This document shows positions 5,697 to 42,661 of a stretch of DNA of 64,000 nt, in pieces (positions within the stretch are counted from its first letter, which is position 1; each line of letters opens with the position of its first letter). Origin of the DNA: Methanosphaera sp. BMS (GTDB lineage: Archaea; Methanobacteriota; Methanobacteria; Methanobacteriales; Methanobacteriaceae); contig NZ_CP014213.1 in assembly GCF_003268005.1 (NCBI RefSeq), positions 2,377,501-2,441,500 on the forward strand, given 5' to 3'. The position numbers were made by a program, and so were the translations under genes. The notes below the pieces were generated by a model, which saw nothing but the letters and a program-made list of their open reading frames with translations, was not told the origin of the DNA and ran no database searches.

Positions 5697-8030
5697 TTAT
5701 CCCGTATTAGGAATTCTCTCGGAGGTATTTGATTTAATGTATTTTGCTACGAAGTTGTTGTACATATTGTTTGTCTGATTTTTAACAGTAGCCGTTAAGT
5801 TGTAATTCAATTTCAGGATTAGACCGGAGGTATCGTAGTTGTTGAAACAGCTTTTCACATAGGATACGGTCAGCCAATTTGTTGGCATACCATGACTTCC
5901 CTCATTGTAGGAACCTGATGGATTTGCCACCAATACCCTTGATTTATCTTTACTTATGTCCAATATTGCAACGTAATGATTCCATGTGTGGAATATCAAT
6001 GCACATCCACCTTTTGACAGTTCATTCAATGCATTGTCAAATGTTGTATTGTAGTAAAATGTAGCGGACATGTTGTGCATTCTGGCAGCACTTGCAAGAC
6101 CGCTGGTTGATGAACCATCAGAATAGGTTGAACCTGCGTCAATGGATCCTCGATACTCTGAAAAGTAAGTCTTAAGCGTCTGACTGCACATGCTAAGGGA
6201 TGTCGGACCGCAGGTATATGACGTGTTTTGAATGTCCCTTACTTCCGAATATGTATATTCAACACCCCTGAGGTTTGCTGTTATCTCCGCAGGGTATGCT
6301 CCTCCATTGGATAATACAAGATTACGGTTTATGGCTTTTTCAATGACATTCCATTTTTCACGTCTCAACACATGATACAAGTCAGGTTCTGATTTTGTCT
6401 TAAATGCAACATATCTTGACATGAAATTATTCAGGTACATGCTGTAGCTATCTTGTACGGTTATTTCCTGATATTGCTCACGTGTAAGGGTATATGTGGC
6501 ATTTTCATCAGCCCACAAGTAATTTGTCATCAAGGAAATATTTGGCATTCCGTCAACATTTTCTATTATATTGTCCAAAGGATTTTTATTACCTTTGATT
6601 GCAGTATTTTCACTATTTAACTTGCTTTTATCCACTGTTTGAATTATCTTCGTATCAGTACTATTTCCATAAACTCCTGATATGTAATATGCATCAATTA
6701 TATGGCTGGAAGTATCATTTGGCATGGTATAATTGTATAATGCCTTTGAATTTACGATGCCTACCTTTTTGATTTGGTTATTGTCTATTTTAAAGAGTAC
6801 ATAACCGCTATTGATGTTGGTCTTATAGTACTTGGTATTGTTGAACGTTACATAAGCACGTAACTCTAATTTATTGGCGTTTTGTGTAGCTTGTGGTATG
6901 TCAAGCAGCAAGTTCACTATAGGTGTTTCATTCTTAACAGTTATGCTGACGGGTACTGCAGTTTTTGTATAACCAGGGGATATGAATTCTAACTTAAAGT
7001 CATGGTTTCCGGCACTCATCTTACCCAGATACAACTCTCTTTTTCCATTGATTAAAGAGTTTTCTCCAATCAGCTTATTGTTTTGATATAATCTGATTTT
7101 TCCTGTTTCAACGATATTTCCATATTCATCAGTAACGTTAACATTCAAGTAAACTATGTCATTTGTCGTTTTTATCAGATTGTTTGAGTTTATTATGGCT
7201 TCCTTAATGATTTGCTTCGATAAGTTGCTTCTTGAACCTTCAAATATTTCATTACCACTGTAAACAGCTTGGATTGTAATGTTGTTGGTCGTCCATGAAA
7301 GGGGTGTCGTGTAATTGAGTACAGCCGAACCGTTTCTAACCCGCACTTCTATTGCCGTATTGTTTGATTTGAGTGTGGCTCCATTGATTTTATATATGGC
7401 TTTTCCACCTGAGACCGGATTTCCCCTTTCATCAATAACCTCAGCCGTTAATTTTATGTTTTCTTGATATGCCAAATTATATGATTTGATGCTAACGGTG
7501 GTGTCTAACTTCATGCCATCCAATATTAGGGGATTGCTTCTACAACTATTATATTGGCTGGTTCCACTATAAACTGCCTCCAGACTGATGGTTTTATTCC
7601 ATGACTTCGGTATGGTATAGTTAAGTATTGCAGTGGAGTTAACCACTGGTGCATAACTTATTTGGCCGTTGTCTTTTATGGTTTCCTTATTTACCTTAAA
7701 CAATACCTTTCCTGCGTTAATGATGCCATCATTTTCATCCTTAACGCTTGCTTTAAGCTGTACGTTGTCTCCGATTTTGCCCGTGAAGTTTTCTACCTCA
7801 ATGTTGGTATTTGTTTTTGAATCGCCTTTAGCTGTCTTGTTTTTTACTTCTGTCTGTTCTATTTTATTGTTTTCGATATTTTTTTCGCTTACCTTAACAT
7901 TGTCAACGTCTTTTAATGTATCACTTAGATTATTTTGTGAATCATCATTAATGGCATTTACACTGGATAATCCCAGTATTAACGTAAATACTACTAAGAA
8001 AAATATCACATCTTTAATCTTGATATTCAA
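5697..8030 (-). CDS. Secreted Ig-like repeat protein with C-terminal C39-like cysteine peptidase
   Basis: The 777-residue protein starts with a signal peptide (IKDVIFFLVVFTLILGLSSVNA) and a polar linker. At least three Ig-like repeats of the kind found in methanogen adhesins follow; each has a 'GKVLFKVN ... VLNYT.P.SW' core ending near 'AVYSG'. The C-terminal 250 residues form a papain-fold domain with Cys607 in SYTCGPTSLSMC, His685 in NHYVAI and Asn703 in ANPSGS, as in peptidase C39 families. It probably acts outside the cell, cleaving peptides or cell-wall cross-links, but the substrate is unknown. The start is TTG at 8028-8030 with an AAAGGAG site upstream; no ATG precedes the signal peptide. 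The canonical pseudomurein endopeptidase (C71) signature was not recognised. Confidence 0.85.
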   Translation of the reverse strand: MNIKIKDVIFFLVVFTLILGLSSVNAINDDSQNNLSDTLKDVDNVKVSEKNIENNKIEQTEVKNKTAKGDSKTNTNIEVENFTGKIGDNVQLKASVKDENDGIINAGKVLFKVNKETIKDNGQISYAPVVNSTAILNYTIPKSWNKTISLEAVYSGTSQYNSCRSNPLILDGMKLDTTVSIKSYNLAYQENIKLTAEVIDERGNPVSGGKAIYKINGATLKSNNTAIEVRVRNGSAVLNYTTPLSWTTNNITIQAVYSGNEIFEGSRSNLSKQIIKEAIINSNNLIKTTNDIVYLNVNVTDEYGNIVETGKIRLYQNNKLIGENSLINGKRELYLGKMSAGNHDFKLEFISPGYTKTAVPVSITVKNETPIVNLLLDIPQATQNANKLELRAYVTFNNTKYYKTNINSGYVLFKIDNNQIKKVGIVNSKALYNYTMPNDTSSHIIDAYYISGVYGNSTDTKIIQTVDKSKLNSENTAIKGNKNPLDNIIENVDGMPNISLMTNYLWADENATYTLTREQYQEITVQDSYSMYLNNFMSRYVAFKTKSEPDLYHVLRREKWNVIEKAINRNLVLSNGGAYPAEITANLRGVEYTYSEVRDIQNTSYTCGPTSLSMCSQTLKTYFSEYRGSIDAGSTYSDGSSTSGLASAARMHNMSATFYYNTTFDNALNELSKGGCALIFHTWNHYVAILDISKDKSRVLVANPSGSYNEGSHGMPTNWLTVSYVKSCFNNYDTSGLILKLNYNLTATVKNQTNNMYNNFVAKYIKSNTSERIPNTG

Positions 8031-38190: not shown

Positions 38191-38457
38191 AATAATTAAT
38201 GTGGGAAATTATCTGAAAAAACTAATATGGATGACCCTTCAATTAACTCTTTTTAGAATAGATTCTCAAATAATTTTCTATTTTTAAGCGGTGTTTAATC
38301 AAAGAGTTACTTCTATAGCAATCGATTTTTTGACCTTTGTTTTGCTGTAACTGTTAGTTATTGTTTTTCTTTTTTTAATCAATAAACACTTCATTTATTC
38401 TTTTTTAGATTATTATCAGCCTATTACTTATTTTATTTCCGTCAACAGATTGAGGCT

Positions 38458-39054
38458 TCATTCTTCGATTTTAATTCCTAAAAACTTTGGATAGGGTTTA
38501 TCATAATACTTGCACATGGTACATAGATAAGTATCATAGATGACATATGCCGAGTACATCATGATAAAGATGCCGAGGTAATAAATATTTTTTTTATTCA
38601 TGAAATTAAGGAATGGTAGACTCCAATTGGAATAAATCCAATAAAAGTATATAACATCCAATATTAAACTTATAGTTACTTGAACAGCACATCGTTTAAA
38701 TAATCCATTGAAATAATTACCCAAACCATTAATAAAGAAAAAGGAAGAAAAAAAGGAAATGATTGTAGGGAGCAACTCATCTTTCAATGAAAAAGCTAAT
38801 CTTCCGAAGTTTTCTTTTTTAATATAAATATACATATATTGAACAAAAAATATTCCTAAAATGTAATAAACATTATTCCAATAGAAGAGTGTAATTCCAA
38901 AAATTTTTAAGAACGAAATTGGAAAAACTGACAAATAATCCTTAAATAAAATATCGATACGTCTATAACCTAATTGACTTAATAAGTACAATGAATGAAT
39001 TATTATAATTATTAACAGTAAATCCGTCCAAATTTTATAATTTTTAAATGTCAT
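38458..39054 (-). CDS. Hypothetical membrane protein, five or so helices
   Basis: I do not recognise this 198-residue protein. It has about five hydrophobic segments (near 10-27, 45-75, 95-115, 125-150, 155-175) and a C-terminal cytoplasmic-looking tail with a CxxC (YLCTMCKYYDKP). Base composition is more AT-rich than neighbouring housekeeping genes. Its ATG overlaps the stop of the upstream hypothetical by one base (TAATG), so the two form a unit of unknown role. Confidence 0.6.
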   Translation of the reverse strand: MTFKNYKIWTDLLLIIIIIHSLYLLSQLGYRRIDILFKDYLSVFPISFLKIFGITLFYWNNVYYILGIFFVQYMYIYIKKENFGRLAFSLKDELLPTIISFFSSFFFINGLGNYFNGLFKRCAVQVTISLILDVIYFYWIYSNWSLPFLNFMNKKNIYYLGIFIMMYSAYVIYDTYLCTMCKYYDKPYPKFLGIKIEE

Positions 39055-39323
39055 TATAAAATTCCCCCTAAATAGTAATCATATATTGAATCATATCTTC
39101 CATTATAATAATTGAATTCCTCTTCTGTTAAATTTCTTTTTCCGTTAGTATCATACACAACCATATCCGTGTAGTCTAAACTTCCCCAACGACTTATCTT
39201 TATTCTGACAACCTTATTATTATCCTCTAATTCTTGCGGACTGTTATATGTTATGTTATTATATGCATCATAATCATGCATACTTAACGATAAATAACCA
39301 TCAGTAATAGCGTAATATTCCAT
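39054..39323 (-). CDS. Small hypothetical acidic protein paired with the membrane protein
   Basis: This 89-residue soluble, tyrosine-rich acidic protein has no family I recognise. The segment VRIKISRWGSLDYTDMVVYDTNG suggests beta strands. It is coupled to the downstream membrane protein through a TAATG overlap. The pair lies in an accessory-looking region beside the repeat-bracketed Fic gene. Confidence 0.5.
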   Translation of the reverse strand: MEYYAITDGYLSLSMHDYDAYNNITYNSPQELEDNNKVVRIKISRWGSLDYTDMVVYDTNGKRNLTEEEFNYYNGRYDSIYDYYLGGIL

Positions 39324-39793
39324 ATTGTTGCTTGTATCTATATATGCTATTACTTAACAATTAATGGTTTAATTGCTCTTATATATAAAGTTTATCATGT
39401 TTAAACAATTTATAATTATAAAATGGAAATATAAACACTGTATAGACTAATATATCATTTTTAAAAAACAATAATTATGAATATTTTCCAAATAATCTTC
39501 AATTTCGTTTATTAAAAAAGATATTTCCATTAGCAATGTATTAATAAATATTTATATTATTTAATTGATTGTCGATTATAATGTATTTCTGATTTGTATA
39601 TATTTGATAATATATCTAAAAAAATTGATTAATTAATTGTCATAAAACAAATAACAATATTTTTCTCTAAATTAATTTTATAGGGTAATTATTATTTTAG
39701 GAATCTTTGTGTGGTTATATATAGAAATAAGAATTTTTAATTTAGTTTTTCTATATTGGATCATAGTGAATTATTAATTACTCAGAATATAAT
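39324..39793. other. AT-rich intergenic stretch before the left Fic repeat
   Basis: These 470 bp of extremely AT-rich sequence contain no supported gene. It presumably includes the promoter of the 39054-39323 gene on the minus strand. Confidence 0.45.
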
Positions 39794-39930
39794 GGGTTGA
39801 TGATTAATGTATGTTTTGGTTGATGATTAATTTTTGAAAAAGATGTAAAGATGATATTTTACCAATCAAAGCCTTTTTATTAAAGATAGAAAAAGTAGTT
39901 TGGTTGATGATTAAAGTTGATGATTATAAT
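39794..39930. repeat. 137-bp direct repeat, left copy, flanking fic
   Basis: By eye this copy is identical to 40990-41126. It ends on the last base of the fic stop codon. Inside are four copies of a GTTGATGATTA motif (39795-39807, 39818-39830, 39902-39914, and a variant at 39915-39929). Confidence 0.93.
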
Positions 39931-40949
39931 CATTGTAATATGTATATAGTACTTCTACCTTTTCCAACTCTTTTTATCAATTTTTTATCTTTTAATTTTT
40001 TAATAATTTTATAACTGGCTTGAGAAGAAATGTTTAACATATTCTGAATATCTTTATTTTTTACCTGTTTTTTTTCTTCAAGTAATGTTAATACAGAAAT
40101 TTCATTTGGGGTTAATTCTATGGTATTATCATATTTTGATGTAATTTGAGTTAAAGTCAATACTTCGTTTTTTACTTTTTCGATTGAATACAATACGCCC
40201 TGACAAAAGTATTCTAACCAAATAGTTAAGTCATGATTTTTATCTGCATTATTTAGTGCATCAACATATGCTTGTCTGTCCTTATTATAATATTCATCCA
40301 ATGTAAAGTAGTTATCAATATTGAATTCATTCATTGATAATATTAATGTAGCCATAATTCTGCTGGTACGTCCATTGCCATCAATAAAAGGATGTATACG
40401 TACTAATTCGTAATGAAGAATTCCTGCAGTAATAACAGGATACATTTCACTTGTACAATTGTTTAACCAGCTTATCAATTCTTCTACTAAATAAGGTACT
40501 TTATAAGCATCAGGTGGTACGTAATTAATTTGTTTGGTATGTATATTGCCGATAATCACACTGGTATCCCTAAATTTACCTTCATATGCTGGATTTCTTA
40601 ACAAATCTTTGGTCAACTCTTTATGTAATGACAGAAGGGTATTTTTTGTAATCTTTTTATCTGAATATTTTTCTAAATGATTCAATACATTAAAGTAATT
40701 TAAAACTTCTTGTTCTGCTTTTGTAACCGGTTTTTGATTGTTTATAATTAATGTTTTTACTTCCTCTAATTTTAAAGGATTTCCCTCAATTGATGTTGAA
40801 TAATGGGAAGACTTGATAAGAGCTTCCTGCTTTAATTGTGTATCATATAATGGAATTATCTTTGCATTACTAATTATCTCCTTGGCTGAAGCAATTTTTG
40901 CAATATAATTTACAATTTTATTTGTATATGTAAATTTCGGTTCAAACAT
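39930..40949 (-). CDS. Fic-domain protein, class II, with C-terminal winged helix
   Basis: This 339-residue Fic/DOC protein would transfer AMP or another phosphate-linked group to target proteins. The active-site motif IHPFIDGNGRTSR (His186 to Arg197) is intact. The inhibitory motif STSIEGN (residues 51-57, Glu55) lies N-terminal, defining the self-inhibited class II. The last 70 residues look like a winged helix (ISVLTLLEEKKQVKNKDIQNMLNISSQASYKIIKKL), which could bind DNA. The gene stands exactly between two identical 137-bp repeats. No separate antitoxin is seen, as expected for class II. Confidence 0.9.
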   Translation of the reverse strand: MFEPKFTYTNKIVNYIAKIASAKEIISNAKIIPLYDTQLKQEALIKSSHYSTSIEGNPLKLEEVKTLIINNQKPVTKAEQEVLNYFNVLNHLEKYSDKKITKNTLLSLHKELTKDLLRNPAYEGKFRDTSVIIGNIHTKQINYVPPDAYKVPYLVEELISWLNNCTSEMYPVITAGILHYELVRIHPFIDGNGRTSRIMATLILSMNEFNIDNYFTLDEYYNKDRQAYVDALNNADKNHDLTIWLEYFCQGVLYSIEKVKNEVLTLTQITSKYDNTIELTPNEISVLTLLEEKKQVKNKDIQNMLNISSQASYKIIKKLKDKKLIKRVGKGRSTIYILQ

Positions 40950-40989
40950 AATATCAACTTATAACCATTATTAATTATTATAATATAAG

Positions 40990-41126
40990 GGGTTGATGAT
41001 TAATGTATGTTTTGGTTGATGATTAATTTTTGAAAAAGATGTAAAGATGATATTTTACCAATCAAAGCCTTTTTATTAAAGATAGAAAAAGTAGTTTGGT
41101 TGATGATTAAAGTTGATGATTATAAT
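40990..41126. repeat. 137-bp direct repeat, right copy, upstream of fic
   Basis: This copy of the repeat at 39794-39930 has the same orientation and starts 40 bp upstream of the fic start codon. It therefore covers the likely promoter, with the four GTTGATGATTA motifs placed as candidate operators. Confidence 0.93.
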
Positions 41127-41674
41127 TTTTAGAATTAAATTAATTTAGAGACTTGCTAAAAATTAGTATAAGAGGGTTTGCTAAAAGTCAAATTTTCAAA
41201 AAGAAAGGGATTTATGTTGTTTCTTGAGAAGTTTAAAGCTGTTTTTAGAAAATATTATTATAGTTTTGGTGAAGTCCCATAAAACAAAAAAAAGCATTAT
41301 TTCTTTTATTCGAGAATTGTCCAAAATTTTTTCATAGATTGTTTTTTCTAATTGAAATTTATTTGAACTTTATGTCTAATGATGCTAAGTGAGATGATGG
41401 TAATTTGGGTGTCTGTAGGAGTTCATTTAATGTGGGGTGGTGTTGATTTTTCTTTTATCCTCCATTTTATGGCTGTTAAGGATAAAATCAGAATCTGTTT
41501 TAATTCAAGCTATCACTTTTCTAATAAAGTATTCTCGAGGGATAATAATCCATACAACAAGTTAAAGGTATATGGGGGGACAATAGTGGCATGCATCTTA
41601 AAAAGGGGGTTCACACTAAACAGAATTAAAGAAGATTCTGGGCATGTAAAAAAGGTTTTTAAGAAAATGATTAT
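41127..41674. other. Intergenic region with repeat traces and possible decayed recombinase end
   Basis: Two TTGCTAAAA copies (41153-41161, 41178-41186) sit within GACTT/AAGTC inverted ends. A plus-strand frame to 41678 contains ACILKRGFTLNRIKEDSGH, which aligns gap-free with the 'LLxxGxxLxxIqexxGH' box of tyrosine recombinases but lacks the catalytic Arg and Tyr. I treat this only as a possible remnant; the rest of the frame is not protein-like. Confidence 0.3.
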
Positions 41675-42661
41675 TTAATCATCATATATTTTTTCAACAA
41701 TGATTTCGGTCAGATAATCCATGTTTTCTTCTGTCAAATAATCAACATCTATGTTTTTTACTTCAATGTTTACTGATGGTATTTTTAATCTGTTATAGTT
41801 AGGACCGGTTGTTATTATTGATTTGTTATCAGCTATTTTCAATTCCTGTTTTATCCTGTATGCTAAGTCTTTTGCTTTCTTTTTGCTTTCTGTTGTTATG
41901 ATTGTGTTGATGCCGGCGGAGTTTTCATAAACTATCTTATGCGTATCATCCATGAGTTTTTTGGATAAATTCTTTTTTAGATAAGTGTTTGCTTCTATTG
42001 TTTTTTTAAGTATTTCGGGGGATTTTCTTATCTCATGTGCTATGGCAGCACAGGTAATCTTGTCTGCCTTGAATGACTTGAGCAAGTGATTGTTAAATGT
42101 TATCTTTTTGGTTATGTTGTTTATGAATCCACCGTTTTCACAGTTTACTATCTTGGGACTTCCGGTGGATGCTATCTGCACGTCGCAGTGGGTGTTGATT
42201 TTTTCACAGCCTACTGTTCCTGAAATATCCAATATTAACACTACGTCATGTAGATTACATAAGTCATATATTTTATCACCAGGGTGCGTTGCAGTATATG
42301 CAATTAGTGATGTGATATACATGGACTTTATGTCATAACTTTCAATATAATCATTCAATACTTCAAGATTTATCATACCCTTGTCGGTTGGAATTTCAAG
42401 GTATTTCTTACCCAATATGTCACATGACTTCTTGAATCCATTCCATCCACCCATATCCACAGTAAGGATAGGCTCCGGCAGTGCTTCTGCAACAGTAAAA
42501 ATACAGCTATTGGCACTATTCATGATGTGGGTCTGACCTGATGGATGAATCTCTTGAATGGATTCTACAGCATCAACATAAAAGTCCTGACTGGAATCCA
42601 CAGCCTCTTTCATGATTTTTTTTGTATCATCACTTATCTTCTTATATTCCAATTTCAACAT
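41675..42661 (-). CDS. PLP-dependent fold-type I enzyme of unknown substrate
   Basis: This 328-residue protein has the arrangement of a small PLP aminotransferase-like enzyme. It has a strand-loop SANSCIFTVAEAL near the cofactor phosphate site and LILDISGTVG with the ring-nitrogen Asp. The probable Schiff-base lysine is in STGSPKIVNCENGGF. It resembles the SelA/DegT-like proteins annotated in methanogens as 'pyridoxal-dependent', but I cannot assign a reaction. It begins nine bases after nreA, so the two are co-transcribed. Confidence 0.6.
   Translation of the reverse strand: MLKLEYKKISDDTKKIMKEAVDSSQDFYVDAVESIQEIHPSGQTHIMNSANSCIFTVAEALPEPILTVDMGGWNGFKKSCDILGKKYLEIPTDKGMINLEVLNDYIESYDIKSMYITSLIAYTATHPGDKIYDLCNLHDVVLILDISGTVGCEKINTHCDVQIASTGSPKIVNCENGGFINNITKKITFNNHLLKSFKADKITCAAIAHEIRKSPEILKKTIEANTYLKKNLSKKLMDDTHKIVYENSAGINTIITTESKKKAKDLAYRIKQELKIADNKSIITTGPNYNRLKIPSVNIEVKNIDVDYLTEENMDYLTEIIVEKIYDD

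What the first reader, a model, noticed from the sequence alone, without database searches (positions are those of the whole stretch)
39794..41126. Class II Fic gene precisely bracketed by identical 137-bp repeats with four-fold motif arrays
The left repeat ends on the last base of the fic stop codon. The right one begins 40 bp upstream of the start and covers the promoter. The copies are identical by eye, which implies recent origin or strong constraint. Each holds four GTTGATGATTA motifs (starts 23, 84 and about 13 bp apart). The Fic protein has a C-terminal winged helix that could bind them. The unit could be a self-regulating mobile cassette, or the product of a tandem duplication that lost one gene copy.
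Basis: partly seen in the sequence, partly recalled or inferred. Interest (0 to 1): 0.8.

Follow-up and report, generated by a model that had tools for sequence, protein, structure and literature searches.

The report
Archaeal Fic toxin cassette bracketed by operators
In a gut-type methane-producing archaeon, a single-gene toxin (Fic) sits between two identical 137-bp DNA blocks, each with four copies of a short sequence that the toxin's own DNA-binding tail probably recognises; the same arrangement recurs in at least 21 related genomes, and where the gene is missing one block is left behind, as expected of a small self-controlled gene unit that can be gained and lost.

Summary
In detail: two exact 137-bp direct repeats (39794-39930, 40990-41126) bracket a class II Fic gene with a C-terminal winged helix. 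It is not a one-off. Among whole genomes of the family, 21 Fic genes of the same kind (Methanosphaera, Methanobrevibacter) have the repeat on both sides, same orientation; one more is cut by a contig end and one (68% identical Fic) has only the promoter copy. Single repeats without fic occur elsewhere. At three loci one genome has repeat-fic-repeat where another has one repeat with the same outer flanks. The four 11-bp motifs are almost invariant (96-99.6%) in promoter, downstream and solo copies while the rest is about 76-80% alike. More distant Fics (42-53%) carry arrays of a different motif, with the 84-bp and 23-bp spacings kept in several, and in two further lineages again on both sides. 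The motif shares TAATCAT with the footprinted operator of CccR, a related Fic-HTH protein. Best reading: an autoregulated Fic toxin whose operator array is duplicated at both ends, making a cassette lost, and probably gained, by recombination between arrays. DNA binding, function of the downstream array, toxicity and direction of gain or loss are inferred. No mobility machinery of its own was found.

The parts
39794..39930 (+). Downstream array (D copy), 137 bp, identical to the promoter copy; ends on the last base of the fic stop codon
39796..39926 (+). Core of the D array in the family alignment (131 positions); motifs GTTGATGATTA at 39796-39806, 39819-39829, 39903-39913, 39916-39926
39930..40949 (-). 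fic gene, 339 aa, class II Fic (PF02661) with C-terminal winged helix
40779..40799 (-). Inhibitory-helix motif S51-T-S-I-E-G-N ((S/T)xxxE(G/N)), invariant except G56 in 17 aligned members
40359..40394 (-). Fic active-site motif HPFIDGNGRTSR (aa 186-197)
39933..40115 (-). Winged-helix domain, aa 279-339: helices 281-293, 298-305, 309-321 and two-strand wing
40972..40988 (-). TATA-like stretch between the promoter array and the start codon
   Evidence: read from the sequence; inferred
40990..41126 (+). Promoter array (P copy), 137 bp, starts 40 bp upstream of the fic start codon
40992..41122 (+). Core of the P array; motifs GTTGATGATTA at 40992-41002, 41015-41025, 41099-41109, 41112-41122
38191..41674 (.). 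Lineage-specific insert of about 3.5 kb holding the cassette, two orphan ORFs and a 99-aa ORF of unknown origin; relatives have the flanking genes (Cgi121, and the gene at 41675-42661) about 80-120 bp apart

Best explanation
A one-gene toxin cassette. The Fic protein (predicted AMP transferase held off by its own inhibitory helix) binds through its C-terminal winged helix to the GTTGATGATTA sites (TAATCATCAAC in the fic sense). The four sites just upstream of the TATA-like box act as its operator, so the protein limits its own expression. A second copy of the same array lies directly behind the stop codon, under its own constraint, and probably lets the protein hold both ends of its gene, for instance in a repressing loop. 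Because the two arrays are long near-identical direct repeats, homologous recombination between them removes fic with one array and leaves a solo array; the reverse reaction at a solo array, or import of the whole bracket with flanking DNA, puts it back. Shown: the bracket in 21 genomes, motif constraint, changed motifs with conserved spacing in distant Fics, same-locus presence/absence, a predicted winged-helix fold. Inferred: DNA binding, repression, looping, AMPylation, toxicity, circle intermediates, direction of gain or loss.
For: (1) Array on both sides, same orientation, for 21 same-kind fic genes with readable flanks. (2) Same-locus pairs with one array instead of array-fic-array: L026/L027, L042-L043/L088-L089, L075-L086/L090. 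(3) Motif columns 99.6% (P), 97.6% (D), 95.9% (solo) mean pairwise identity against 76.3, 75.5, 79.5% elsewhere. (4) Fics at 42-53% identity have their own arrays: AATCATCAAG with spacing 13-84-23; TCATTACC with 11-24-84-23-11; TTTTCATCAAG with 23-85-23 plus an 89% identical 106-bp bracket; AGTNGTCAAA upstream and downstream. (5) The CccR Fic-HTH protein (7XUX, phmmer E 9.7e-16, Foldseek rank 2) represses its own gene through AGATAATCAT sites (PMC9755527); TAATCAT is shared, chance about 1%. (6) Model pLDDT 90, winged helix at 281-338. (7) Within Methanosphaera fic is 86-88% identical to species whose neighbouring core genes are 54-81% identical, and the locus is empty in relatives.
Against: No binding data. 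The motif is a direct, non-palindromic repeat, while CccR binds an inverted pair 26 bp apart. The downstream array is missing in some relatives (L023, L154, L155, L156), so it is not essential to the family. Solo arrays keep most motifs in genomes without fic, which fits recent loss but also another binding protein. Whether solo arrays arise by loss or serve as targets was not polarised. Gene regulation and mobility may be two separate stories.
Confidence: 0.6

Rival explanations
1. The arrays are ends of a mobile element moved by a recombinase or transposase supplied in trans, with fic as cargo (integron- or MITE-like).
For: Dispersed solo arrays, different neighbours in each species, long conserved array with spaced sites, a zeta toxin pair also between arrays in L039, tyrosine recombinases beside the cassette in L025 and L040.
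Against: Both ends are in direct, not inverted, orientation; no recombinase shared by the loci; crossovers fall in different parts of the array (12-55, 5-45, beyond 87); no hairpin; motifs change with the Fic protein.
Confidence: 0.15
2. The motifs are sites of a host regulator or an architectural protein, not of Fic; Fic merely sits in a commonly regulated position.
For: Solo arrays keep motifs in genomes where no fic was found; plasmid-borne relatives mostly lack such arrays.
Against: The motif differs between Fic subfamilies while the spacing stays much the same; the related CccR protein binds its own promoter at a site sharing TAATCAT.
Confidence: 0.2
3. Tandem duplication of an array-fic unit followed by loss of one fic; no function of the second array.
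For: Would give array-fic-array with identical copies, as in this window.
Against: Would have to be repeated in or shared by 21 genomes; the downstream motifs are constrained; in the g17 genus the upstream and downstream arrays have diverged nearly everywhere but at the motifs.
Confidence: 0.12

Closest known systems
CccR (Yersinia pseudotuberculosis), Fic-HTH toxin and autorepressor, PDB 7XUX
   Same: Class II Fic with C-terminal HTH; binds its own promoter; footprint AGATAATCAT shares TAATCAT with the motif here (PMC9755527).
   Different: There an inverted pair 26 bp apart at the promoter only; here four direct sites spaced 13-84-23, duplicated behind the gene; about 22% identity over the structural alignment; nothing here suggests secretion.
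SoFic / Sofic anti-phage Fic proteins
   Same: Best PADLOC match (E 7.8e-58, aa 16-337); same Fic-plus-C-terminal-domain build.
   Different: Far below the NCBIfam SoFic equivalog cut-off (64 of 550 bits); no AS1-like antitoxin gene inside the cassette (AS1: PMC12249575); no defence data.
Integron gene cassettes (also reported from archaea, PMC9668308)
   Same: One gene plus a repeat of about 130 bp; solo sites; stop codon at the edge of the repeat in several members; two gene units between three repeats in L039.
   Different: No integrase platform, no foldable attC-like structure, crossovers not at one point, repeat tied to one gene family.
LTR and solo-LTR pattern of retrotransposons (analogy only)
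   Same: Long direct repeats around a gene, single repeats left after loss.
   Different: No reverse transcriptase or integrase in the unit.

Membership tests
Class II Fic proteins | Fic domain with HxFx(D/E)GNGRxxR | tested here: met
   Pfam Fic E 1.5e-21; HPFIDGNGRTSR
Class II Fic proteins | Inhibitory motif (S/T)xxxE(G/N) N-terminal to the Fic motif | tested here: met
   S51TSIEG, near-invariant
Fic-HTH autoregulators (CccR-like) | C-terminal winged helix | tested here: met
   Pfam MarR E 1.4e-6; model confidence about 90 in that region
Fic-HTH autoregulators (CccR-like) | Operator repeats at own promoter bound by the HTH | tested here: inconclusive
   Repeats present and constrained; binding not testable
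SoFic anti-phage system | NCBIfam SoFic equivalog score | tested here: not met
   64 bits, cut-off 550
SoFic anti-phage system | Protection against phage or archaeal virus | not testable with these tools
   No experiment; PADLOC SoFic model match only
Integron cassette | attC-like foldable recombination site | tested here: not met
   No fold better than shuffles, z -0.4 to 1.1
Integron cassette | Integron integrase with the array | tested here: not met
   No integrase common to the loci; tyrosine recombinases seen beside only L025 and L040
DNA transposon or MITE | Terminal inverted repeats and target-site duplication | tested here: inconclusive
   Arrays are direct repeats; target duplication not resolvable, the insert is composite

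The most novel reading that the evidence does not exclude
A minimal selfish unit without a transposase: a toxin gene framed by its own operator arrays, where the toxin's DNA-binding tail holds both ends of its gene, and the arrays serve at once as switch, recombination ends and, as solo arrays, landing pads. Each Fic lineage has evolved its own address sequence while largely keeping the site spacing; one genus kept the bracket although its Fic active site is broken (HPF to QPF, GNGR to GNGS).
Probability: 0.25. Interest if true: 0.82.

Novelty: new variant of a known kind. Interest (0 to 1): 0.62.

Why it matters
Fic-HTH toxins are common, but how they are controlled and how they spread is little known, especially in archaea. 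Here sequence alone gives a testable operator code (the motif changes with the protein while the spacing is largely kept), an unexplained second operator behind the gene, and a simple route for gain and loss of a toxin gene without its own recombinase. Gut and rumen methanogens carry it, so it bears on how their defence and toxin genes turn over.

Tried and rejected
Non-coding RNA: no Rfam match; no structure beyond shuffles. Viral or plasmid origin: the motif pair is absent from IMG/VR contigs and no related Fic was found there; in phage and plasmid records only distant Fics, at most 33% identical among the listed hits. Site-specific crossover point: hybrid analysis places crossovers at different positions. 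Inverted repeat at 39664-39681/41134-41151 as transposon ends: built mostly on a palindromic AT stretch; not pursued. General rule for all Fic-HTH proteins: of eight plasmid-borne relatives read, none has a bracket; one (Geminocystis) has three copies of a 10-mer in the promoter and some others show palindromes there by eye. A first structure model from close relatives only was poor (pLDDT 57); a more diverse alignment gave 90. A family scan with the sequence profile failed on the server; a consensus DNA query was used instead. Literature searches found no description of the repeat.

Full report
What is there. The window lies in a 2.87-Mb single-contig genome; the relatives that carry the same gene are named Methanosphaera and Methanobrevibacter (one contig is labelled Clostridia, which may be a binning error). 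Two exact 137-bp direct repeats at 39794-39930 and 40990-41126 bracket a 339-aa Fic gene on the minus strand. The protein has a Fic domain and a MarR/TrmB-type winged helix, the class II inhibitory motif STSIEGN and the active-site motif HPFIDGNGRTSR. The model built from a diverse alignment is confident (pLDDT 90) and shows the winged helix at 281-338; the closest solved structures are Fic proteins, several with an HTH domain, among them 7XUX.

Own genome. Only these two exact copies and one solo copy exist. The cassette is part of a lineage-specific insert of about 3.5 kb: in the nearest relative (G005) and in seven other Methanosphaera the flanking genes are about 80-120 bp apart. Fic is 86-88% identical to Fic of four other Methanosphaera species, while neighbouring core genes are 54-81% identical to those species where compared, and Fic is absent from the nearest relatives. 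This fits horizontal spread.

Relatives. In whole genomes of the genus and family, 21 fic genes of this kind with readable flanks have the array on both sides in the same orientation: five in Methanosphaera with the window and sixteen elsewhere in the family, including one broken fic (L144). One more has its promoter copy cut by a contig end (L128), two lie at contig ends, and one with 68% identical Fic (L023) has only the promoter copy. Fourteen nearly full-length arrays occur without fic directly beside them, also in genomes where no such Fic was found (for example G010).

Presence and absence at the same place. L026 has array-fic-array between ilvC and a phosphoesterase; L027, 98-99% identical in the neighbouring proteins, has one array with the same outer flanks. 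The same holds for L042/L043 against L088/L089 and for L075/L086 against L090. Sites where the two arrays differ show that the solo array joins the left part of one to the right part of the other, with the switch at 12-55, at 5-45 and, in the third case, not before 87; so no single exchange point, as expected of homologous recombination. In the first case 11 other genomes have no array near the phosphoesterase gene, so the array is probably not ancestral there. In many genomes the two arrays of a pair are each other's closest relative, as expected from gene conversion or recent insertion.

The motifs. Positions 0, 23, 107 and 120 are kept. Mean pairwise identity in motif columns is 99.6% in promoter copies, 97.6% in downstream copies and 95.9% in solo copies, against 75-80% in the other columns. 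So the downstream copy too is constrained, and the order promoter, downstream, solo fits a function centred on the promoter. The 84-bp spacer drifts.

Motif and protein change together. Fics at about 50% identity have arrays of another motif: AATCATCAAG at spacing 13-84-23 (L155), TCATTACC at 11-24-84-23-11 (L156), TTTTCATCAAG at 23-85-23 with a bracket of 106 bp, 89% identical (L153). At 42% identity three species carry AGTNGTCAAA arrays upstream and downstream, alike mainly at the motifs (L146, L147, L152); their active site reads QPFTEGNGS, so it is probably dead. Shuffled flanks reach 2-3 copies at most. One genome (G024) has two Fics with different flanking repeats, although the second has only two copies, which is not significant by itself.

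Known relative. CccR, a Fic-HTH protein related by sequence (phmmer E 9.7e-16, aa 10-329) and fold, represses its own gene through AGATAATCAT-N26-ATGATAATCT (PMC9755527). Our motif read along fic is TTAATCATCAACC; seven bases, TAATCAT, are shared, with about 1% chance. This makes Fic itself the likeliest binder.

What remains open. Binding, repression, the role of the downstream array, toxicity and a defence role (best PADLOC model SoFic, but far below the NCBIfam equivalog cut-off) are untested. The direction of change at the three loci is not polarised. The downstream array could serve looping, or be the trace of integration at a solo array that is then kept.

Noticed in passing
L039:3600-4959, L075:18664-19423, L043:6396-7155, L085:6683-7445, L084:2139-2897: A small gene pair (65 aa plus a 197-aa zeta-toxin-like ATPase, Pfam E 1.3e-10) recurs next to the Fic arrays; in L039 it lies between two full arrays, giving array-zeta-array-fic-array.
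   Followed up: partly
L146, L147, L152 (genus g17): Fic homologues with a broken active site (QPFTEGNGS) keep motif arrays on both sides, which suggests a DNA-binding role without AMPylation.
   Followed up: partly
L075:5114-5199 and 6688-6784; L100:4769-4875; L101:4605-4711: Shortened arrays that begin at the second motif; in L075 two of them flank an ATPase_2 gene with a winged helix instead of fic.
   Followed up: partly
L040:346-503/2882-3041 and L041:2175-2320/4255-4406: A second, unrelated pair of direct repeats (76-79%) lies outside the Fic cassette.
   Followed up: no
right outer flanks in L040-L044, L084, L085, L088, L089: Downstream of many arrays lies a conserved stretch of about 60 bp with ends GTAACTAT and ATAGTTAC, possibly a tiny inverted-repeat element.
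   Followed up: no
L150 downstream of fic; L151 downstream of fic: Tandem 12-bp repeats (GGTTGCTGATTA, GGTTGTGGATTA) directly behind more distant Fic genes; part of L150 is masked as N.
   Followed up: partly
window:41379-41678: A 99-aa ORF without Pfam match between the cassette and the next conserved gene, within the lineage-specific insert; origin unknown.
   Followed up: no
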